From NCBI RefSeq assembly GCF_009455635.1, contig NZ_QPER01000002.1, positions 2,046,001 through 2,110,000 on the forward strand: a DNA stretch of 64,000 nucleotides. Direction: 5' to 3'. A program made the position numbers and the translations under genes. Position 1 is the first letter of the stretch. Every line of letters starts with the position of its first letter. Positions 19,066-28,205 of this stretch are shown piece after piece. Origin of the DNA: Paraburkholderia agricolaris (GTDB lineage Bacteria; Pseudomonadota; Gammaproteobacteria; Burkholderiales; Burkholderiaceae). The notes beneath the pieces were generated by a model, which did not search any database, had not been told where the DNA came from, and saw only the letters and a list, made by a program, of their open reading frames with translations.

Positions 19066-21570
19066 ATGTCCACACCCATCCCCACCCACGCTCGCGTCGT
19101 CATTGTCGGGGGCGGCATTATTGGCTGTTCGGTCGCCTATCACCTCACCAAGCTGGGTTGGACCGATGTGGTGCTGCTGGAACAGGGTCAACTGTCGTGC
19201 GGTACGACCTGGCACGCGGCCGGCCTCGTCGGCCAACTGCGCGCGCAGGAAAGCATGACCAAACTGATCCGCTACTCGACTGCGCTCTACGCCGAACTCG
19301 AAACCGACACCGGTCTCGCCACCGGCTGGAAGCAATGCGGTTCGCTCTCGGTGGCCCGCACGGCCGAGCGGATGACGCAACTCAAGCGCACTGCCGCCGT
19401 CGCGCGCGCCTACGGCGTGGCGTGCGACGTGATCAGCCCACAGGAAGCCGGCGCTCTATGGCCGGTGATGCGCACCGACGACCTGCTCGGCGCCGTCTGG
19501 CTGCCAGGCGACGGTAAAGCGAACCCCACCGATTTGACCCAGGCCCTCGCCCGCGGTGCGCGCACACGCGGCGCACGCATCGTCGAGAACACCCGCGTCA
19601 CGGCGATCCATACGCGCACCGCGCTCGAAGACAAGGCCAATGGCACAACCGGTGCACGCGAAGTCAGCGGCCTCGCGTGGCGTAACAAGGATGGTGAAGA
19701 AGGCACGCTCAGCGCGGATATCGTCGTGAATTGCGCGGGCCAGTGGGCCAAGGCGGTTGGCCGCCTGTGCGGCGTGACCGTGCCGCTACATTCGGCCGAG
19801 CACTACTACATCGTCACCGAGCGCATTGCCGGCGTGCATCCGGACCTGCCGGTGATGCGTGACCCGGACGGCTTCATCTACTTCAAGGAAGAAGTGGGCG
19901 GCCTCGTGATGGGCGGTTTCGAGCCGAATGCGAAGCCGTGGGGCATGAACGGCATCCCGGAGAATTTCGAATTCCAGTTGCTGCCCGATGATTGGGATCA
20001 GTTCGAAATCCTGATGGAAAATGCGCTGCAACGCGTGCCCGCGCTCCAGACAGCGCAGGTTAAACAGTTCTACAACGGCCCGGAGTCGTTCACGCCGGAC
20101 AACAACTTCATGCTTGGCGAAGCACCCGAATTGCGGCGCTTTTTTGTCGGCGCGGGTTTCAATTCGATGGGAATTGCGTCGGCGGGCGGCGCGGGCATGG
20201 CGCTCGCCGAATGGATCGTCGCAGGCGAACCTACGATGGACCTGTGGCCGGTCGACATCCGCCGCTTTGCGCGTTTTAACGGCAACGACACGTGGCTGCA
20301 CGATCGCGTGAAGGAAACGCTTGGCCTGCACTACGCAATGCCGTGGCCAAATCGTGAACTCGACAGCGCGCGGCCATTTCGCCGCTCGCCCCTGTATTCG
20401 CTGCTGCGTGACAATGGCGCCTGTTTCGGCAGCAAGATGGGCTGGGAACGTGCCAACTTCTTCGCGCCGACACCCGCGGAAGCTCAGATCGATTACGCGT
20501 TCGGCCAGCAGAACTGGCTGCCGTGGAGCGGCGCCGAACATCGCGCGTGCCGTGAAGGCGTCGTGCTGTTCGACATGACGTCGTTCTCCAAATTTCTGGT
20601 CAAGGGACGCGACGCGGAAAGCGTGCTGCAAGGCATCCTCACCAACGACGTTGCCGTACCGCCCGGCACCACCGTCTATACCGGCATGCTCAACGAGCGT
20701 GGCACGTACGAGTCCGACTTCACGCTGAGCCGCCTTGCCGACGACCAGTATCTGATCGTCTCCGGCTCGGCGCAGACTACGCGCGATTTCGACTACATCG
20801 AGAAGTCGATCCCCCACGACAAACACTGCACGCTGGTCGACGTCACCGGCCAGTACGCGGTGCTGGCCGTGATGGGCCCGCGCTCGCGCGAACTGCTGCA
20901 AAGCGTATCGAAGGCGGACTGGAGCAACGAGGCGTTTGCGTTCGGCCAGAGCCGCGAGATCGATCTCGGCTACGCGACGGTGCGCGCCACGCGTCTCACC
21001 TACGTCGGCGAACTGGGCTGGGAGTTGTACGTGCCCGTGGAATTCGCGGTGGGCGTCTACGAAACACTGCACGCCGCGGGCAACGCGTTCGGTCTCGTCA
21101 ACGCAGGCTATTACGCCATCGATTCGCTGCGTATCGAGAAAGGCTATCGCGCGTGGAGCCGCGAGTTGACGCCGGACACCAATCCGTTCGAAGCCGGTCT
21201 TTCGTTTGCCTGCAAGCTGAACAAGGACATTCCGTTCCGTGGCCGCGATGCTTTGCTGAAATTACGCGCCGAACCGCTGCGCCGCCGTATGGTGGTGCTC
21301 ACCGCCGATGGCGCCGCCGATCGCATGCTGTGGGGCGGCGAAGCGATTCTGCGTGACGGCAAGCCCGTCGGCTTCGTCAGTTCGGCGGCGTTCGGGCACA
21401 CGCTCGGCTGTCCTGTTGCGATGGGCTACATCAACAATCCGGACGGCGTCGCCGATGCGGCGTATCTGAACGGCGGTCAATACATGATCGACGTCGCCGG
21501 CGATCTGCTGCCGGCCACCGTGCATCTGAAGGCGCCTTATGATCCGCGCTCGGAACGGGTGAAGGGCTAA
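19066..21570 (+). CDS. FAD-dependent dimethylglycine/sarcosine dehydrogenase-like protein with GcvT domain
   Basis: An 834-residue two-module enzyme. The N-terminal FAD oxidoreductase has the dinucleotide motif VVIVGGGIIG (about residues 11-20) and TTWHAAGL, where His50 is at the position that covalently holds FAD in dimethylglycine and sarcosine dehydrogenases. The C-terminal half is a GcvT aminomethyltransferase (about 440-830), which in this family passes the oxidised methyl group to tetrahydrofolate. The substrate is likely an N-methylated glycine derivative. It stands alone, without sarcosine-oxidase or folate genes nearby, and its stop overlaps the cytochrome b561 gene on the other strand by 4 bases. 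Confidence 0.88.
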   Translation: MSTPIPTHARVVIVGGGIIGCSVAYHLTKLGWTDVVLLEQGQLSCGTTWHAAGLVGQLRAQESMTKLIRYSTALYAELETDTGLATGWKQCGSLSVARTAERMTQLKRTAAVARAYGVACDVISPQEAGALWPVMRTDDLLGAVWLPGDGKANPTDLTQALARGARTRGARIVENTRVTAIHTRTALEDKANGTTGAREVSGLAWRNKDGEEGTLSADIVVNCAGQWAKAVGRLCGVTVPLHSAEHYYIVTERIAGVHPDLPVMRDPDGFIYFKEEVGGLVMGGFEPNAKPWGMNGIPENFEFQLLPDDWDQFEILMENALQRVPALQTAQVKQFYNGPESFTPDNNFMLGEAPELRRFFVGAGFNSMGIASAGGAGMALAEWIVAGEPTMDLWPVDIRRFARFNGNDTWLHDRVKETLGLHYAMPWPNRELDSARPFRRSPLYSLLRDNGACFGSKMGWERANFFAPTPAEAQIDYAFGQQNWLPWSGAEHRACREGVVLFDMTSFSKFLVKGRDAESVLQGILTNDVAVPPGTTVYTGMLNERGTYESDFTLSRLADDQYLIVSGSAQTTRDFDYIEKSIPHDKHCTLVDVTGQYAVLAVMGPRSRELLQSVSKADWSNEAFAFGQSREIDLGYATVRATRLTYVGELGWELYVPVEFAVGVYETLHAAGNAFGLVNAGYYAIDSLRIEKGYRAWSRELTPDTNPFEAGLSFACKLNKDIPFRGRDALLKLRAEPLRRRMVVLTADGAADRMLWGGEAILRDGKPVGFVSSAAFGHTLGCPVAMGYINNPDGVADAAYLNGGQYMIDVAGDLLPATVHLKAPYDPRSERVKG

Positions 21571-22106
21571 CGCCCGCCGCGCGCCATACTCGAGAACACC
21601 CCGTCGCGGCGGATCAACCCATGCAACAGCGCTGCCGCGAGATGCAGCAGCACGGTGGCAAACAGCGCGAATGCGAGCCACGTGTGCAACGCGCGCAGTA
21701 CCGCGAACAGTTCGACGTTGTGCGGCGCGATCGGCGGCAAATGCAGCGGGCCATATAGCGTGACCGGATAGCCCGCTGCGGACAACATCGCCCAGCCGAT
21801 CAATGGCATCGCCGCCATCAGCGCATAGAGGACGAGATGCGACAGCCTGGCGGCGATGCGCTGCGGCGCCGGCATATCCTGCGGCAGCGGTGGCGTGCCG
21901 CGCCTCATACGCACGCTCGCGCGCAGCACCACCAGCAGCAGCAACGCAATGCCAAGCGGCTTGTGAATTGCGATCAACGTGTTATGCGCATGCGACACCG
22001 TCGCGACCATCCCCACCCCGATAAACAGCATCGCGACAATCAGCGGCGCCATCGTCCAGTGCAGAACGCGCGCGAGCGGACTGAAATGTGCGTGCGTCTG
22101 CTTCAT
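21567..22106 (-). CDS. Cytochrome b561 family protein
   Basis: A 179-residue integral membrane protein with four helices. Conserved haem-ligand histidines are visible in the first helix (RVLHWTMAP), near IHKPLGI and in LRALHTWLAF / VLLHLAAALLHG. It belongs to the YceJ/CybB group, which moves electrons from the quinone pool to periplasmic partners. It starts within the stop codon of the catalase-like gene (4 bp overlap), so the two are almost certainly a functional pair: membrane electron donor and periplasmic haem peroxidase. The operon lies under an ECF-type promoter element at 23234-23258. Confidence 0.9.
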   Translation of the reverse strand: MKQTHAHFSPLARVLHWTMAPLIVAMLFIGVGMVATVSHAHNTLIAIHKPLGIALLLLVVLRASVRMRRGTPPLPQDMPAPQRIAARLSHLVLYALMAAMPLIGWAMLSAAGYPVTLYGPLHLPPIAPHNVELFAVLRALHTWLAFALFATVLLHLAAALLHGLIRRDGVFSSMARGGR

Positions 22107-23194
22107 GACTGGCCTCCGTTTTTCTGTGTTTGATGGATCGCGGGATGCAGCGTTTCTTCGAGCGTGCGTCGCTTATAGGACAACGCGTAAGCCGCCGAGC
22201 GTGCCGCGAGCAGCGGATCGTTCGAGGGACGAATACCCGTCGGCAAGATGGTTGGATCGAAATTGACGTCGCGGCACGTACCGTTTTCCTGCGACGTCGA
22301 ACGATCGATCACCAGCGTGCCGGCATCGATATGCTGACGATCGTCGGGCCATTGCATCGTCGCGTCGTCGATGGGGTCGCCCGGCTGCGCGACTGTCAGG
22401 ATCAGATGCCAGCGCAGCGGTCCGTTTTGCAGGCGTTGATCGAGGTCGGCCGCGAGAAAATTCTTCCCAGCCTTTTGTGCATCGGTAATCGGCTCATACG
22501 GTGTTTCGGGCACCATGGCCCAACGCACGGCACGCTTGTCGCCGGCACTGTCGGCAAACCAGAATGCGTTGATGCTGTAGTACGCGGCGTTCGCCAGACT
22601 CGATGACGGCGGATGCGCTTTCACCCACGCCTGAAAGGGCCTGGTTTCCGGATTCGCGTCGTAAAACGCTTTCAGGGTGGCTGGATTCGGTTTGCCGGTC
22701 GCGGCATCAGGTTTCGCCGCGACCAGTTGCTGATAAAACTGCTCGGGCGTATGAACCGCGAATACGGGTGTGGAATTCATTCCCGTACGCCATTGCTCAC
22801 CGTTCTGCAATTCAAACAGCAAGGCCATACTGCGCACCGGAGAGCTGGTGTCGGGCGCCGACGGGTTACCGCCCGGCACCGCAAAGCGGCCCGTGACCGG
22901 CGTGCGGCCGGCGGCGAACACGGCGGCGCGCGATAGCGCCGTGCCGTTGCCGTTACTGTCGAAATAGCCTGCCACGCACAGGCCTTTTGCATGGTTGCGG
23001 CGGTAGCCCGGATGGGGCTGCCCGGCCACCGCCTCGAAGGTATTGATGAAACGCGGCGCTGTGAGCCGTGCGGGCGTCAGCCAGCCCGCGGTATAAGCGA
23101 AGCCACCGGCAAGGACAGCGACGACCGTGCCGATCGCGGCGAGCCGGCATGGCACGCATAAGGGTTCAGAATTGGGAACGGATGGTTTTGTCAC
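22103..23194 (-). CDS. Membrane-anchored catalase-related peroxidase (SrpA-like)
   Basis: A 363-residue haem peroxidase of the small catalase family. A single N-terminal helix (about residues 17-38, AIGTVVAVLAGGFAYTAGW) anchors it facing the periplasm. Conserved segments are PRFINTFEA, the distal-His segment NHAKGLCVAGYF, and RPSNDPLLAARSAAYALSYKRR near the C-terminus, which would supply the proximal Tyr. I chose GTG at 23194 because AGGAG lies five bases upstream; an ATG at 23224 in the same frame has no ribosome site. It is coupled to cytochrome b561. Small catalases with such a partner tend to reduce peroxides with electrons rather than dismutate H2O2 (family knowledge). Confidence 0.88.
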   Translation of the reverse strand: MTKPSVPNSEPLCVPCRLAAIGTVVAVLAGGFAYTAGWLTPARLTAPRFINTFEAVAGQPHPGYRRNHAKGLCVAGYFDSNGNGTALSRAAVFAAGRTPVTGRFAVPGGNPSAPDTSSPVRSMALLFELQNGEQWRTGMNSTPVFAVHTPEQFYQQLVAAKPDAATGKPNPATLKAFYDANPETRPFQAWVKAHPPSSSLANAAYYSINAFWFADSAGDKRAVRWAMVPETPYEPITDAQKAGKNFLAADLDQRLQNGPLRWHLILTVAQPGDPIDDATMQWPDDRQHIDAGTLVIDRSTSQENGTCRDVNFDPTILPTGIRPSNDPLLAARSAAYALSYKRRTLEETLHPAIHQTQKNGGQS

Positions 23195-23233
23195 AACGAC
23201 TCCTTGACGCCCGGAAAGATGCACTCATCGGTG

Positions 23234-23258
23234 AACACCGAATTCAGCGATCTATTCC
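23234..23258 (-). promoter_or_regulatory. ECF-type promoter element for catalase-cytochrome b561 operon
   Basis: GGAAT (23258-23254) and GTT (23236-23234) are separated by 17 bases on the minus strand, 40 bases upstream of the peroxidase start. It is the fourth and least similar copy of an element shared with the neighbouring DUF4148, anti-sigma and sigma genes. Activity is inferred from recurrence and position. Confidence 0.55.
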
Positions 23259-23260
23259 AT

Positions 23261-23296
23261 TCGATATCCGGCGCGTCCGTTCGCGCCGGATATCGA
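23261..23296. terminator. Strong hairpin between DUF4148 and peroxidase genes
   Basis: A perfect 15-bp stem (23261-23275 with 23282-23296) closes a 6-base loop, just after the DUF4148 stop and just before the GGAAT element. There is no T-run, so intrinsic termination is uncertain. It may be an mRNA 3'-end stabiliser or insulate the next promoter. Confidence 0.55.
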
Positions 23297-23301
23297 TCCC
23301 T

Positions 23302-23571
23302 TCAATTGACGTTACCCGTCGCCGCGCTGCCGCCCGCGACGTGGCTCGCGGCGGCCGCCTTTGCGGCAAGTGCCTGCTTGTTGTGCTCGACCTGCTGGGC
23401 GAAGACGGGACTCACATCCGGGTACGATGCATCGGTGACGTAGTCAAGGCCGTTCTGTTGGGCTTCGATCAATTCCTGGTACACCTGAGCACGTGTCTTG
23501 CCTTCGGCAAAAACGCTCGATGAAGCGGCAAGAATCACAACGGACAATGCGGCAAAAGCGATCTTCTTCAT
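23302..23571 (-). CDS. DUF4148 secreted small protein
   Basis: An 89-residue exported protein. A cleavable signal peptide ends near VFA-EGK (about residue 23), followed by the DUF4148 motif KTRAQVYQELIEAQQNGLD and a short Ala-rich tail. The family is common in Burkholderiales and has no defined function. GGAG precedes the ATG at 23571. Its promoter region contains the GGAAT-N18-GTT element, so it is probably part of the local ECF regulon. Confidence 0.85.
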   Translation of the reverse strand: MKKIAFAALSVVILAASSSVFAEGKTRAQVYQELIEAQQNGLDYVTDASYPDVSPVFAQQVEHNKQALAAKAAAASHVAGGSAATGNVN

Positions 23572-23612
23572 GATGAACTCCAGAGAGTTTTGTGCGGGTT
23601 CGCATGAGGGAA

Positions 23613-23638
23613 AACCACGGGCCGGCGGTTTTTATTCC
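23613..23638 (-). promoter_or_regulatory. ECF-type promoter element for the DUF4148 gene
   Basis: On the minus strand GGAATAAA begins at 23638, and GTT (23615-23613) follows after an 18-base spacer. The spacer shares CCGCC and CCGTG with the divergent copy at 23675. It lies about 42 bases upstream of the DUF4148 start codon. Confidence 0.65.
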
Positions 23639-23674
23639 TGCTTTGACGCTTCGAAAAAAACAAACTTCAAACGT

Positions 23675-23700
23675 GGAATAAACCCGCCTCAGCGCGTGTT
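23675..23700 (+). promoter_or_regulatory. ECF-type promoter element for the first anti-sigma-like gene
   Basis: GGAATAAA (23675-23682) and GTT (23698-23700) are separated by an 18-base spacer containing CCGCC and GCGCGT. It lies 38 bases upstream of the start at 23739 and is back to back with the minus-strand copy at 23613-23638. Confidence 0.68.
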
Positions 23701-23738
23701 TGCCGTTTGCTAGCTGAAATCCGACGCACGCCGACACC

Positions 23739-24464
23739 ATGACCTCAACCGACGCCCCCTCCGACTCGCCGCTTTCCGAAGCCGACATTCAGGCCTACGC
23801 CGATGGCACGCTAACGCCGGAACGCACGGCGTTTCTGCGGGACTATCTGGGCAAGGATCCGGCGGAGGCACGCCGGGTGGCGTTCTACGGCAGATTGAAC
23901 GCACAGATGCAGCAAGCCTTCCAGACAACCGGCGAACCCGTTTCGAACCGCGCAGAAGGAGCGCGCGGCGCGCCCGGCCGGCTAAAGGCCGCGCAGCGTC
24001 CGGGCAAGGTATTCAATACGCTCGCGGCGCTCGTTCTGGCGCTGACGGCCACGAGCGGCTGGCTTGCCGCCACCCAGGTGTCCGGCCAGGCGCTCAACAA
24101 TGCCGCCGTGATGGCGTTGGCGGAAATCGCCGCCGCGCCGTATTCCGCCGCGTCGCCGACGCGAACCGACGGGTCCGCACCCAGACTCGCCGCGATAGGC
24201 CTGCGGCTCGTGGATCAAAGGGCCCTATCGCTCGGCCCGTTCCAACGCGCCAATGAATTCGTCTATCTGAACGAAGACAACCAGCCCGTCGTGGTGATGT
24301 CCACCCTGGCACTGTTTGCACAGGCGCAGCCGCAGTGGATCGCCCGTCGTATCGGCGAGATCCGGTTGCTGACGTGGACGGCGCAGCGCCAGCACTTTGT
24401 CGTCGCGGGCGACGCTCGTACTCGTCGCCTGATGCGTGCCGCCGACGTGATGACCATGCGCTAA
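23739..24464 (+). CDS. Anti-sigma-factor-like membrane protein
   Basis: A 241-residue protein. The cytoplasmic N-terminal segment has the motif DIQAYADGTLTPERTAFL (about residues 16-33), a single membrane helix covers about residues 91-111, and a periplasmic domain of about 130 residues follows. The N-terminal motif matches that of the second anti-sigma protein at 25138, so the two are paralogues on either side of the sigma gene. No Cys/His zinc site is present. It is expected to hold or modulate the adjacent ECF sigma factor; a specific partner is not shown. It has its own ECF-type promoter element. Confidence 0.72.
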   Translation: MTSTDAPSDSPLSEADIQAYADGTLTPERTAFLRDYLGKDPAEARRVAFYGRLNAQMQQAFQTTGEPVSNRAEGARGAPGRLKAAQRPGKVFNTLAALVLALTATSGWLAATQVSGQALNNAAVMALAEIAAAPYSAASPTRTDGSAPRLAAIGLRLVDQRALSLGPFQRANEFVYLNEDNQPVVVMSTLALFAQAQPQWIARRIGEIRLLTWTAQRQHFVVAGDARTRRLMRAADVMTMR

Positions 24465-24516
24465 ACCACGCGCTAAGCCGTGCGCTGACTTTTCTCGCCA
24501 CGCTGCAAAAAACATC

Positions 24517-24541
24517 GGAATAAAATGCGCCCACGCGTGTT
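24517..24541 (+). promoter_or_regulatory. ECF-type promoter element for the sigma gene
   Basis: GGAATAAA (24517-24524) and GTT (24539-24541) are separated by 17 bases, with GCGCC and CGCGT inside the spacer as in the upstream copies. It lies 81 bases upstream of the sigma start codon. This suggests that the sigma factor activates its own gene. A CACGCGT/ACGCGTG inverted repeat follows closely. Confidence 0.65.
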
Positions 24542-24622
24542 CGCACTTTGAATACGCGTGGCGGTTCAATCGACCGCCGCCCACCCGGCGCCTCACGAGA
24601 AGCCCCACGATCGGGATGAAAA

Positions 24623-25141
24623 ATGGATGTCCGTGACGAGTTGATGGAGCATGTGCCGCGCTTGCGGCGCTATGCGCGAGCGCTGATCAACAATCGCGAT
24701 CTCGCCGACGATCTGGTGCAAGACACGCTTGAACGCGCGCTCGGCCGCACCGGCATGTTCCAGCCCGGCACCGACCTGCGCGCATGGCTGTTTACGATCA
24801 TGCATAACGTGTTCGCCAATCAGGCGCGTAAGGCCTCGGCACGCGCCGTCCACGTGGCGGTCGACGATGCCAGCGTCCACGAAAGCGAATTTGCGGTGCC
24901 GTCCGATCAAACCCGTTCGCTGGAAATGCGTGACCTTGATTATGCGTTGCAGCGCCTGCCCATCGAGCAGCGCGAAGTCGTGTTGCTGGTCGGTCTTGAG
25001 GAAATGAGCTATGCCGACGTGGCCCTCGCACTGAACATTCCGCTCGGCACGGTGATGTCGCGTCTTTCGCGCGGACGCGAGCGGCTTCGGGCGTTGATGG
25101 CGGGCACGCAGCCCGGTGCAAAATTACAGGTGGTGCGATGA
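24623..25141 (+). CDS. ECF-family RNA polymerase sigma factor
   Basis: A 172-residue group IV sigma factor. Region 2 covers about residues 5-75 (DLADDLVQDTLERAL, then LRAWLFTIMHNVFAN) and region 4 about residues 108-165 (LPIEQREVVLLVGLEEMSYADVA, then LGTVMSRLSRGRERL). It lacks regions 1.1 and 3, as expected. It overlaps the downstream anti-sigma gene by 4 bases (ATGA), the classic sigma/anti-sigma arrangement. The GGAAT-N17/18-GTT element that recurs around it is the likely recognition site. Its proposed regulon is the local peroxidase, cytochrome b561, DUF4148 and anti-sigma genes. Confidence 0.93.
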   Translation: MDVRDELMEHVPRLRRYARALINNRDLADDLVQDTLERALGRTGMFQPGTDLRAWLFTIMHNVFANQARKASARAVHVAVDDASVHESEFAVPSDQTRSLEMRDLDYALQRLPIEQREVVLLVGLEEMSYADVALALNIPLGTVMSRLSRGRERLRALMAGTQPGAKLQVVR

Positions 25142-25965
25142 GCGACCAACATACGCCGATCGGCGAAGAAGACCTGCACGCCTACGTGGACGGAACCCTG
25201 TCCGACGAACGGCGCGTCGAGGTGGAGCGCGCGCTCGAACAGAACCCCGAGCTGGCCGCCCGCGTCAGCGACTATTTCTCGCTGAACAACATGTTCCATG
25301 AACGCTATGACCGCGTGCTGAGCGAGCCCGTGCCCAAACGTCTGCAAACGCCGGCGGCCGGCAAGCGCCGCTGGCAGATTGCTGCCAACTGGCCGCAGGT
25401 TGCCGGCATGGCAGCGGCGCTGGTGATGGGTGTGGGCATCGGCATGGGCACGCACATGGGGCGGGACGTCGTCGCGCCGATTGCAGGTCAAGCGGACACG
25501 CGCCCCGTCAGTGCGGACAGTTCGGAAATGTTTGCACGGCAAGCCGCGCTGGCGCATGTGGTTTATATGCCCGCTATCGACCGTCCGGCCGACATGACCG
25601 CGGATCACGAACAGGATTTCGTGCAATGGCTGTCCAACCGGCTCGGCACCAACGTGCATCCGCCGATGCTGTCGAAGAGCGGTTTCAACCTGTCGGGCGG
25701 CCGCCTGTTGCCGGGCGCCGACGGGCCGACTGCCCAATTCATGTATCGCGGGCCAAACGGCGAACGCGTGACGCTGTGCATTTCGCATCGTCAGGTGAGT
25801 TCGAACACCACGGCGTTCAAGCTGTATCAGGACGGGCCGGTGAACGTGTTCTACTGGGTCGATGGCGACTTTGGTTATGCCGTGTCGGGCGGGATCGATC
25901 GCAAGGTGCTGTTGCAACTCTCGCACGACGTGTATTCGCAGTTGACGGGCGTGGCGCCGGGTTGA
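25138..25965 (+). CDS. Anti-sigma factor, membrane-spanning
   Basis: A 275-residue protein with a cytoplasmic N-terminal segment (EDLHAYVDGTLSDERR, about residues 11-26) and one membrane helix near 85-104 (VAGMAAALVMGVGIGMG). The periplasmic C-terminal domain, about 170 residues, ends with a segment typical of the family (FYWVDGDFGYAVSGGID). Translational coupling with the sigma gene makes it the prime anti-sigma candidate. It lacks the HxxxCxxC motif of zinc anti-sigma factors, so the signal is probably sensed in the periplasm. Confidence 0.85.
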   Translation: MSDQHTPIGEEDLHAYVDGTLSDERRVEVERALEQNPELAARVSDYFSLNNMFHERYDRVLSEPVPKRLQTPAAGKRRWQIAANWPQVAGMAAALVMGVGIGMGTHMGRDVVAPIAGQADTRPVSADSSEMFARQAALAHVVYMPAIDRPADMTADHEQDFVQWLSNRLGTNVHPPMLSKSGFNLSGGRLLPGADGPTAQFMYRGPNGERVTLCISHRQVSSNTTAFKLYQDGPVNVFYWVDGDFGYAVSGGIDRKVLLQLSHDVYSQLTGVAPG

Positions 25966-25993: not shown

Positions 25994-27073
25994 TCAGTTG
26001 GCTGAACCGCTGCCGCGATCGAGCGACGCCGCGCGCATGGCGTCGCCCGGATTGCTGAAGAACTGCTGACGCAGTTGGGCGACCTGCGCGTCGTGTTGCT
26101 GAGGCGGCAAATCCTGTTTGTCGATCTGCGCGCGCTGGCTTGCGTAGTCCGCGTAGCGGGCTTGCCAGGCGTCGTCGGCTTGCTGCATCTGCACGACGCG
26201 CTCCGCTGCTTCAGGCCCAAGTGTTTGTGTGATCTGCGCACGCGTTGCATCGAGCGAACCGCCTTGCTTCTGCGCCTGAGCGATCGCGTCGAGCGCGGCC
26301 TGCTGCTGGCGTGCACGCTCGTGGGCCGCGCGTACTTCCGGCGGGAGTGCGGCGTCCAGCGCGGCGAGGCGGGCCGCTTTCTGCGCGTCGCTGAGCGAGT
26401 TATCCGAAGCGATGCGCAGGCGTGCCAGATCGGTGTGTTGCCGCTGCGATTCAGTGCCGAAGAACGGCTCGTTCCAGTCTCCCATCAATCGCGCGCCCAA
26501 CGCGTCGCGCTGATCGAGCGAGAGTTGCAGCGCGTCGAAGTTCGGCTTTGCGCCGCCCGGGTTCTGGCTTTGGCTCTGGGTCGGGGAACTGTCCGGTAAT
26601 TGCGCGAGCGCCTTGAGATACGCGTTGTAGCGCTGCCAGACGGTCAGCGCTTCGTCAGCGGCCGACGTGCCGTCGAGTTGTGCCGCGATCTGACGACGCA
26701 CCACTGCGTCGAGCGTCGCCGCTGAAATTTCATTTTGCGTCGTCAGGAAGTAATCGAAGAAATCGCGTACCGCACGCGTACGCGCGAGGTGGCCATGGCC
26801 ATCGGTTGGCAAGCGCGGCGGCGATGACCCGTCGAGCGAAGCGGGCAATGCCCCGGCCATCGATGCGTCGGCGGTCGGGGTTTTACTCACAGCAGGCGCC
26901 TGTTGCGCAGAACTCGCGGCACGCCCAGTTTTTTGTGCCGACGCTTCATGCGTGAGCGGCGTACGGCTCAGCCATAACGCGGCGCCCGCCGACAGCACGC
27001 CCACCGCGATGAAAGCCAGCCACTGGCTCCGCGCACTGCCCCATTGCCGCCCCAATCGCCCCAATCGCCGCAT
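25994..27073 (-). CDS. lifO: Lipase-specific foldase
   Basis: A 359-residue steric chaperone, anchored by an N-terminal helix (about residues 18-36), with an Ala/Pro-rich linker and a helical periplasmic lipase-binding domain. The family signature RxxFDY is present as RAVRDFFDYFLTTQNE. It folds LipA in the periplasm before type II secretion. It lies 4 bases downstream of lipA in the usual lipA-lifO order. Confidence 0.94.
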   Translation of the reverse strand: MRRLGRLGRQWGSARSQWLAFIAVGVLSAGAALWLSRTPLTHEASAQKTGRAASSAQQAPAVSKTPTADASMAGALPASLDGSSPPRLPTDGHGHLARTRAVRDFFDYFLTTQNEISAATLDAVVRRQIAAQLDGTSAADEALTVWQRYNAYLKALAQLPDSSPTQSQSQNPGGAKPNFDALQLSLDQRDALGARLMGDWNEPFFGTESQRQHTDLARLRIASDNSLSDAQKAARLAALDAALPPEVRAAHERARQQQAALDAIAQAQKQGGSLDATRAQITQTLGPEAAERVVQMQQADDAWQARYADYASQRAQIDKQDLPPQQHDAQVAQLRQQFFSNPGDAMRAASLDRGSGSAN

Positions 27074-27077
27074 CCGC

Positions 27078-28205
<1,128 letters not shown>

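What the first reader, a model, noticed from the sequence alone, without database searches (positions are those of the whole stretch)
21567..25965. Self-contained ECF sigma regulon with four shared promoter elements
Four upstream regions in 1.3 kb carry GGAAT, a 17- or 18-base spacer, then GTT: 23234-23258 (minus), 23613-23638 (minus), 23675-23700 (plus) and 24517-24541 (plus). Three share GGAATAAA plus CCGCC/GCGCC and CGTG in the spacer. They precede the peroxidase-cytochrome b561 pair, a DUF4148 protein, an anti-sigma-like protein and the sigma gene itself. Seen directly: the repeats and their positions. Inferred: the sigma factor reads them and autoregulates. The logic would be an envelope peroxide-defence switch.
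Basis: partly seen in the sequence, partly recalled or inferred. Interest (0 to 1): 0.75.

Follow-up and report, generated by a model that had tools for sequence, protein, structure and literature searches.

The report
Sigma-factor switch for envelope oxidant defence
A soil bacterium carries a compact gene switch whose shared promoter signals, kept in many related species, very probably let one regulator turn on a membrane peroxidase, its own two brakes and a distant protein-repair enzyme when the cell envelope is attacked by oxidants.

Summary
Observation confirmed: the four GGAAT-N17/18-GTT elements lie where stated, beyond chance (9 in the window, 2.5 expected). Across 80 named loci the element precedes sigma in 66 of 80, the second anti-sigma in 76 of 76, DUF4148 in 64 of 66 and the peroxidase in 47 of 50; five control gene sets have none. 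In the family the strict motif occurs in 26 of 44 genomes with this sigma and 3 of 116 without.

Best reading: an ECF26-like sigma with a co-encoded anti-sigma that autoregulates and drives a membrane-anchored small catalase-type peroxidase plus cytochrome b561, a DUF4148 exported protein, and a second anti-sigma that is a paralogue of the first.

"Self-contained" is not right: msrP in the same genome carries the element, as it does in 41 of 41 sampled genomes with the same sigma lineage. In relatives it also precedes DsbD-like, molybdoenzyme and DUF4148-type genes. The regulon is envelope oxidant removal and repair. Sigma dependence, transcription starts and the inducing signal are not shown.

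Promoter type and sigma/anti-sigma layout are known (ECF26); the sigma-driven second anti-sigma and the peroxidase/MsrPQ combination make it a new variant.

The parts
21567..22106 (-). cytochrome b561 (179 aa), second gene of the peroxidase operon
   Evidence: Pfam PF01292, 106 bits, cut-off 30.1
22103..23194 (-). catalase-family peroxidase with an N-terminal hydrophobic stretch (anchor by eye); start probably GTG 23194-23192
   Evidence: Pfam PF00199, 89 bits (on the longer ORF from 23224); nearest solved structure 3e4w, E 7e-31; start and AAGGAG read
23234..23258 (-). promoter element of the peroxidase-b561 operon, GGAAT-N17-GTT
   Evidence: element in 47 of 50 relatives
23302..23571 (-). 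DUF4148 exported protein (89 aa)
   Evidence: Pfam PF13663, 48.7 bits, cut-off 27
23613..23638 (-). promoter element of DUF4148, GGAAT-N18-GTT (GTGGTT type)
   Evidence: 64 of 66 relatives
23675..23700 (+). promoter element of the second anti-sigma, GGAAT-N18-GTT
   Evidence: 76 of 76 relatives
23739..24464 (+). AntiS2, second anti-sigma-like protein (241 aa)
   Evidence: no Pfam or NCBIfam family; database names 'anti-sigma factor family protein'; profile match to AntiS1, 98.8% over 224 columns
24517..24541 (+). promoter element of the sigma operon, GGAAT-N17-GTT
   Evidence: 66 of 80 relatives
24623..25141 (+). ECF sigma factor (172 aa)
   Evidence: Pfam Sigma70_r2 and Sigma70_r4_2; NCBIfam TIGR02937 81 bits, cut-off 42.9
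25138..25965 (+). AntiS1, anti-sigma overlapping the sigma stop (275 aa)
   Evidence: Pfam zf-HC2 22.9 bits, cut-off 22.2; weak NCBIfam anti-sigma matches below cut-off

Best explanation
This is an ECF26-like sigma-factor switch that guards the cell envelope against oxidants. AntiS1, made from the same operon, would hold the sigma inactive at the membrane; damage outside the cytoplasm would release it. Sigma-RNA polymerase would then start from GGAATA-N14/15-GTGTT-type promoters and raise (a) sigma and AntiS1, (b) a membrane-anchored catalase-type peroxidase fed electrons by cytochrome b561, (c) the DUF4148 exported protein, (d) a second, paralogous anti-sigma under its own promoter, giving delayed negative feedback, and (e) away from the locus, MsrPQ, which repairs oxidised methionine in envelope proteins. 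Shown here: gene content, elements, their conservation, their co-occurrence with the sigma gene, the paralogy of the two anti-sigmas, the msrP element. Inferred: sigma binding, transcription starts, release mechanism and signal, and what AntiS2 does.
For: Elements before the same genes in 66/80, 76/76, 64/66 and 47/50 named loci, control genes 0/5, 0/15, 0/15, 0/79, 0/50. 132 motif matches in 47 of 58 genus genomes, wrong spacing 7 in 5 of 58, reversed pattern 5. Motif in 26 of 44 sigma-bearing and 3 of 116 sigma-less genomes of the family, Fisher 4e-15. Of 13 loci with AntiS2 but no sigma element, 8 have an operon-like AntiS2-sigma gap of 21-92 bases, against 93-367 in the 63 with the element. 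The element precedes peroxidase genes that sit at other loci in 4 genomes (L153, L178, L187, L197). msrP element in 45 of 60 sampled genomes, wrong strand 2 of 60; 41 of 41 with a sigma of 91% identity or more; MsrP identity above NCBIfam cut-off, 500 against 207 bits. Promoter agrees with the ECF26 consensus and mapped S. meliloti promoters (PMC6180224, passages).
Against: No expression or binding data. 18 of 44 sigma-bearing family genomes have no strict match. Fisher test not corrected for shared ancestry. Genomes with an 83-86% sigma lack the msrP element (0 of 11) and one of two genomes without a detected sigma has it. In 19 off-cluster DUF4148-type cases the element lies 132-404 bases before the start, longer than usual. 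A paralogous sigma has a near-identical -35.
Confidence: 0.8

Rival explanations
1. The promoters are real but are read also, or mainly, by the paralogous ECF sigma on chromosome 1 (L002), so the locus is one output of a shared ECF26-type network.
For: The paralogue (51%) has a homologous anti-sigma and an own GGAATAAA element. In S. meliloti RpoE1, RpoE4 and RpoE6 each activated a foreign ECF26 promoter (PMC10880074, passages).
Against: The paralogue's element ends CGCGTTAATC, not GTGTTnGC. The motif tracks the local sigma gene in the family; whether the sigma-less genomes hold the paralogue was not tested.
Confidence: 0.15
2. AntiS2 is not a second brake but a modulator: a sensor, an anti-anti-sigma or a decoy that frees the sigma from AntiS1.
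For: AntiS2 has no recognised family, is only 23% identical to AntiS1 in the profile alignment, and is itself sigma-promoted; no binding is shown.
Against: Its N-terminal part keeps the anti-sigma-like stretch conserved in 15 aligned homologues, and the whole length aligns with AntiS1.
Confidence: 0.3
3. The system answers another signal, such as sulfite or metal stress, and the peroxidase and MsrPQ are side outputs.
For: The studied ECF26 sigmas RpoE1 and RpoE4 respond to sulfite (PMC3511301, passages).
Against: The recurrent enzyme targets are peroxidase, MsrP, DsbD-like and molybdoenzyme-cytochrome b units; no sulfite oxidase operon was seen at the locus.
Confidence: 0.2
4. The repeats are binding sites of some other regulator, or chance GGAAT words, and not promoters.
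For: No 5' ends are known and GGAAT is short.
Against: Two boxes at fixed spacing on the right strand, loss of the signal with wrong spacing, match to mapped ECF26 promoters, co-occurrence with the sigma gene.
Confidence: 0.04

Closest known systems
ECF26 sigma factors, e.g. Sinorhizobium meliloti RpoE1 and RpoE4 (PMC3511301, PMC6180224, PMC6527743; passages only)
   Same: -35 GGAATA and -10 GT type promoters, autoregulated sigma with downstream anti-sigma, very small regulon
   Different: those regulons centre on sulfite oxidation; here peroxidase-b561, DUF4148, a second anti-sigma and msrP; formal group assignment not testable here
Peroxidase-cytochrome b-ECF sigma-anti-sigma row on Pantoea agglomerans plasmid p33.1_2 (L274)
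   Same: same four gene types side by side; GGAATAAAG...CGTC 59 bases before the peroxidase start (the loose pattern itself is not above chance in that locus); sigma 39%, anti-sigma 25% identical
   Different: one operon, one anti-sigma, no DUF4148 gene listed, CGTC-type -10
Burkholderia cenocepacia BCAL3477 catalase / BCAL3478 sigma (PMC2830190, PMC2194791; passages)
   Same: sigma divergent from a catalase gene, rising together after H2O2; sigma linked to an anti-sigma gene
   Different: orthology not tested; no promoter analysis seen; not significantly induced by NaOCl
Brucella BcrS-AbcS with bcrXQP (PMC8315932; passages); Azospira SigF system (recalled, paper not held)
   Same: ECF sigma that drives MsrPQ-type envelope methionine repair
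   Different: ECF16 sigma, six-helix NrsF-type anti-sigma, methionine-rich peptide, GTAAC/CGAA-type promoters, no catalase-type peroxidase seen in the passages
Small catalase-type protein of PDB 3e4w/3e4y
   Same: same fold family over residues 44-343, E 7e-31
   Different: the window protein adds an N-terminal hydrophobic stretch and a cytochrome b561 partner; that the solved protein is a peroxidase is recalled

Membership tests
ECF26 sigma factors | promoters with -35 GGAATA and -10 GT | tested here: met
   against the consensus in PMC6180224 (passages)
ECF26 sigma factors | downstream anti-sigma of COG5662 type with one membrane helix and periplasmic C-terminal domain | tested here: inconclusive
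   AntiS1 overlaps the sigma stop and passes zf-HC2 narrowly; no COG library or helix predictor was run, helix read by eye
ECF26 sigma factors | sigma protein scores best with the ECF26 group model | not testable with these tools
   no ECF group models; the classification paper is not held
ECF16/NrsF-type MsrPQ regulators (BcrS, SigF) | NrsF-type six-helix anti-sigma | tested here: not met
   neither AntiS1 nor AntiS2 matches such a family; description from PMC8315932 passages
ECF16/NrsF-type MsrPQ regulators (BcrS, SigF) | GTAACC-N16-CGAA promoters | tested here: not met
   elements are GGAATA...GTGTT; consensus from PMC3511200 passages
ECF11 RpoE-ChrR systems | ChrR-like anti-sigma with cupin domain | tested here: not met
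   no cupin match in AntiS1 or AntiS2; ECF11 description from PMC3597554 passages
Small catalase-type peroxidases | catalase fold by sequence | tested here: met
   PF00199 89 bits; 3e4w E 7e-31
Small catalase-type peroxidases | peroxidase activity with electrons from cytochrome b561 | not testable with these tools
   gene order only
MsrP (distant target in the own genome) | NCBIfam equivalog NF003767 above cut-off | tested here: met
   500.1 bits, cut-off 207

The most novel reading that the evidence does not exclude
One ECF26-type sigma runs a two-brake circuit: the sigma operon encodes the primary anti-sigma, and a duplicated, sigma-induced anti-sigma with one or two sigma promoters of its own shuts the response off, so that peroxide removal by a b561-fed membrane peroxidase and methionine repair by MsrPQ are fired as a pulse across much of the genus.
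Probability: 0.4. Interest if true: 0.65.

Novelty: new variant of a known kind. Interest (0 to 1): 0.5.

Why it matters
ECF control of envelope methionine repair (MsrPQ) is known from an unrelated sigma/anti-sigma type (Brucella BcrS, PMC8315932 passages). Here an ECF26-like system appears to have reached the same solution and added peroxide removal. The locus gives a small, conserved and easily tested regulon with a sigma-induced second anti-sigma, a circuit feature that can be measured directly. It also gives DUF4148 proteins, whose function is unknown, a concrete regulatory context: the local one, and 19 of 65 distant element sites in relatives, lie before DUF4148-type genes.

Tried and rejected
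ECF11 (ChrR cupin) and ECF16 (NrsF, GTAACC) were considered and rejected on anti-sigma type and promoter. The idea that the spacer words CCGCC/GCGCC are part of the signal was dropped: they vary between species. The DsbD-like gene is a target in three relatives (L141, L142, L179), but the best own-genome homologue (63%, L204) shows no GGAAT in the roughly 350 bases before its start (read by eye). Of the four other GGAATA-N14/15-GTGTT sites in the own genome, two precede near-identical helix-turn-helix (XRE-like, recalled) genes and two have no clear gene in position; not claimed. An own-genome site at C2:89416 precedes a cytochrome b561 gene but lacks the GTG of the -10 box; undecided. The plasmid searches gave no annotated Burkholderia locus, so BCAL3478 orthology stayed untested. 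The S. meliloti pSymA hit had no annotation. Acidovorax plasmid L276, sigma 54% identical, has no GGAATA-N13..16-GT. The solved-structure search with AntiS1 gave nothing credible. In one search two loci share one element sequence (G012 and G036), so the genome label printed for L143 is wrong; counts are unaffected. Labels such as DUF305-like, GshA-like, response regulator, AraC and RidA for off-cluster genes are recalled from the sequences, not from a family search, and each rests on a representative taken from the same list (AraC and RidA matched only themselves). No paper on this locus was found by searches, but the ECF reclassification paper and the Azospira paper are not held, so I claim no absence from print.
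Full report
What is there. The window lies in a Paraburkholderia genome (G000 C2:2046001-2110000, 8.72 Mb; the sigma protein is 100% identical to that of P. fungorum LMG 16225). From 21567 to 25965 it holds cytochrome b561 (-), a catalase-family peroxidase (-), DUF4148 (-), an anti-sigma-like protein AntiS2 (+), an ECF sigma factor (+) and its anti-sigma AntiS1 (+). The four GGAAT-N17/18-GTT elements are at the stated places; the window has 9 such matches against 2.52 in shuffles, none of 100 shuffles reaching 9.

Genome-wide rarity. GGAATAAA-N10..13-CGTG occurs three times in the genome, all here, against 2 for the reversed pattern. GGAATA-N14/15-GTGTT occurs 8 times, 0 for the reversed pattern: the peroxidase, AntiS2 and sigma elements, one before msrP on the other contig, and four without a convincing target. 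GGAATA-N16/17-GTTnGC occurs 14 times, 3 for the reversed pattern.

Conservation at the locus. One scan of genome contigs with the sigma protein kept 80 loci, the best 80 of 138 that encode a relative; a few genomes give two loci. Within 300 bases upstream on the right strand, GGAAT-N17/18-GTT is found for sigma in 66 of 80, AntiS2 76 of 76, DUF4148 64 of 66 and peroxidase 47 of 50. Control genes in the same loci have 0 of 5 (gcvT-like), 0 of 15 (lipase chaperone), 0 of 15 (lipase), 0 of 79 (AntiS1) and 0 of 50 (b561); the last two have coding sequence upstream. Shuffled upstream sequences gave 6 of 800, 9 of 760, 11 of 660 and 3 of 500. I left out peroxidase and b561 hits whose match begins after residue 45, gcvT-like hits beginning after residue 5, and upstream stretches under 200 bases. 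Majority sequences are GGAATA..N..GTGTTnGC for three genes and GGAATA..N..GTGGTTCTCC for DUF4148. Of the 76 loci with AntiS2, 13 lack a sigma element; in 8 of these the gap between AntiS2 and sigma is 21-92 bases (126-154 in the other 5), whereas it is 93-367 in the 63 that have both. This is what one expects if the sigma gene then rides on the AntiS2 promoter. Gene content moves: 29 of 80 loci show no peroxidase in the stretch held (some stretches are short), and in 10 Caballeronia-type loci it sits downstream on the other strand, with an element in front in 7 of the 10.

The motif follows the sigma gene. In 58 genomes of the genus GGAATA-N14/15-GTGTTnGC has 132 matches in 47 genomes; with N20/21 it has 7 matches in 5 genomes; the reversed pattern has 5. 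In 160 genomes of the family 44 carry the sigma gene (E <= 1e-50). The motif is in 26 of these 44 and in 3 of the other 116 (64 and 3 matches; Fisher 4e-15); with genomes of at least 5 Mb only it is 25 of 43 against 2 of 61 (p 2e-10). These figures are not corrected for shared ancestry, and 18 sigma-bearing genomes have no strict match.

Targets outside the locus. By a first sorting 67 of the 132 matches lie in sigma clusters (same letters as in the named loci, or two within 2.5 kb) and 65 elsewhere. I fetched all 65. Downstream genes were DUF4148-type proteins with a C-terminal CVGPxxFC-like motif in 19 (starts 132-404 bases from the element), AntiS2 homologues in 9 (one weak, 24%; these belong to diverged sigma clusters), sigma in 1, MsrP in 5, peroxidase in 4, a DsbD/thioredoxin fusion in 3, cytochrome b plus molybdopterin oxidoreductase in 3, a DUF305-like exported protein in 3, a glutamate-cysteine-ligase-like protein in 2, response regulators in 2, AraC 1, RidA 1, and no recurrent gene in 12 (family support). 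The recurring enzymes fit oxidant removal from, or repair of, the envelope.

msrP. All 97 genus genomes examined have an msrP match (E <= 1e-120; the one in G008 is partial with a stop). I read the upstream region of 60 of the 97, five of them cut by contig ends. GGAAT-N16..19-GTT is on the right strand in 45 of 60 and on the wrong strand in 2 of 60. By sigma identity: >= 91%, 41 of 41; 83-86%, 0 of 11; 76-81%, 3 of 6; no sigma found, 1 of 2. The 45 elements have 39 different spacers but keep GGAATA (41) or GGAATT (4) and TGTT. In the window's own genome the msrP element reads GGAATATTTGCTGCATCCAGGGTGTTCG. So the regulon in this genome is probably at least five transcription units, and 'self-contained' is too narrow.

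The two anti-sigmas. AntiS1 and AntiS2 align over nearly their full length (98.8% probability, 224 columns, 23% identity): AntiS2 looks like a diverged duplicate. In 35 of 76 loci a second element lies 100-300 bases before AntiS2 on its strand, 56-139 bases upstream of the proximal one in the 34 that have both; the window lacks it. A sigma-driven extra anti-sigma suggests delayed shut-off. This is inference; that AntiS2 binds the sigma has not been shown.

Paralogue and specificity. A second sigma in this genome (L002, 51%) has a homologous anti-sigma, an upstream 48-aa lipoprotein-like frame and the element GGAATAAATCACCGTCTGCTCGCGTTAATC. This resembles the S. meliloti SMc01418-rpoE1-ecfR1 arrangement and its mapped promoter (PMC6180224, passages). 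The shared -35 and different -10 suggest that the -10 box separates the two sigmas (inference); cross-talk remains possible.

Comparison with what is known. The promoter fits the ECF26 consensus (-35 GGAATA, -10 GT, PMC6180224; GGAAT and CGTC in PMC6527743, passages). The best-studied ECF26 sigmas respond to sulfite and drive sulfite oxidase (PMC3511301, passages). Formal group assignment could not be tested. A Pantoea agglomerans plasmid holds peroxidase, cytochrome b, ECF sigma (39%) and anti-sigma (25%) in a row, with GGAATAAAG...CGTC before the peroxidase; the loose pattern is not above chance in that locus, so its position carries the argument. The peroxidase-b561-sigma module is thus wider than Burkholderiaceae. 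ECF control of MsrPQ is known from BcrS of Brucella (ECF16, NrsF-type anti-sigma; PMC8315932, passages). In B. cenocepacia biofilms a catalase (BCAL3477) and divergent sigma (BCAL3478) rose together, most at 60 min after H2O2, not significantly with NaOCl; a cytochrome b561 unit BCAL1105-1107 rose with both oxidants (PMC2830190, passages). Orthology of these genes with the present ones was not tested.

Verdict. The central inference (sigma reads the elements and autoregulates) is strongly supported by comparison but not proven. The regulon is broader than proposed and the signal is open. New variant of a known kind.

Noticed in passing
L010, L022, L034 and 32 other loci, DUF4148-AntiS2 intergenic region: A second plus-strand element (GGAATAAA...GGGTTTGC or GGAATAAC...GTGTTTACGCGC type) 100-300 bases before AntiS2 in 35 of 76 loci, absent from the window; tandem promoter or a short transcript.
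   Followed up: partly
L137-L139, L143-L145, L164, L168 and others: Small exported DUF4148-type proteins ending in CVGPxxFC..FGS-like motifs behind the element in relatives; the two cysteines are lacking in the window's DUF4148 protein.
   Followed up: partly
L002 (own genome, C1:2872260-2872715): Paralogous ECF sigma with lipoprotein-like small frame, homologous anti-sigma and its own GGAATAAA...CGCGTTAATC element.
   Followed up: partly
own genome C1:783100 and C1:803844 (L266, L267): Two near-identical upstream regions 21 kb apart before similar 132-aa helix-turn-helix genes, both with GGAATATACATTCCAT..GGGTGTT.
   Followed up: no
window 25994-28172: Lipase and lipase chaperone genes next to the locus in 15 of 80 relatives, without the element.
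   Followed up: no
genomes G008, G071 and G075: G008 has an msrP element but no detected sigma gene; sigma matches with an internal stop in G071 and in the second copy of G075.
   Followed up: no
L276 (Acidovorax sp. T1 plasmid): A 54%-identical sigma with anti-sigma next to YncE-family and DUF305 genes and a further sigma gene, near IS1071, without a GGAATA-type element.
   Followed up: no
own genome C2:89416 (L101): GGAATAAAACGGCACACTGGCACGTTAGC about 100 bases before another cytochrome b561 gene; -10 unlike the local type.
   Followed up: partly
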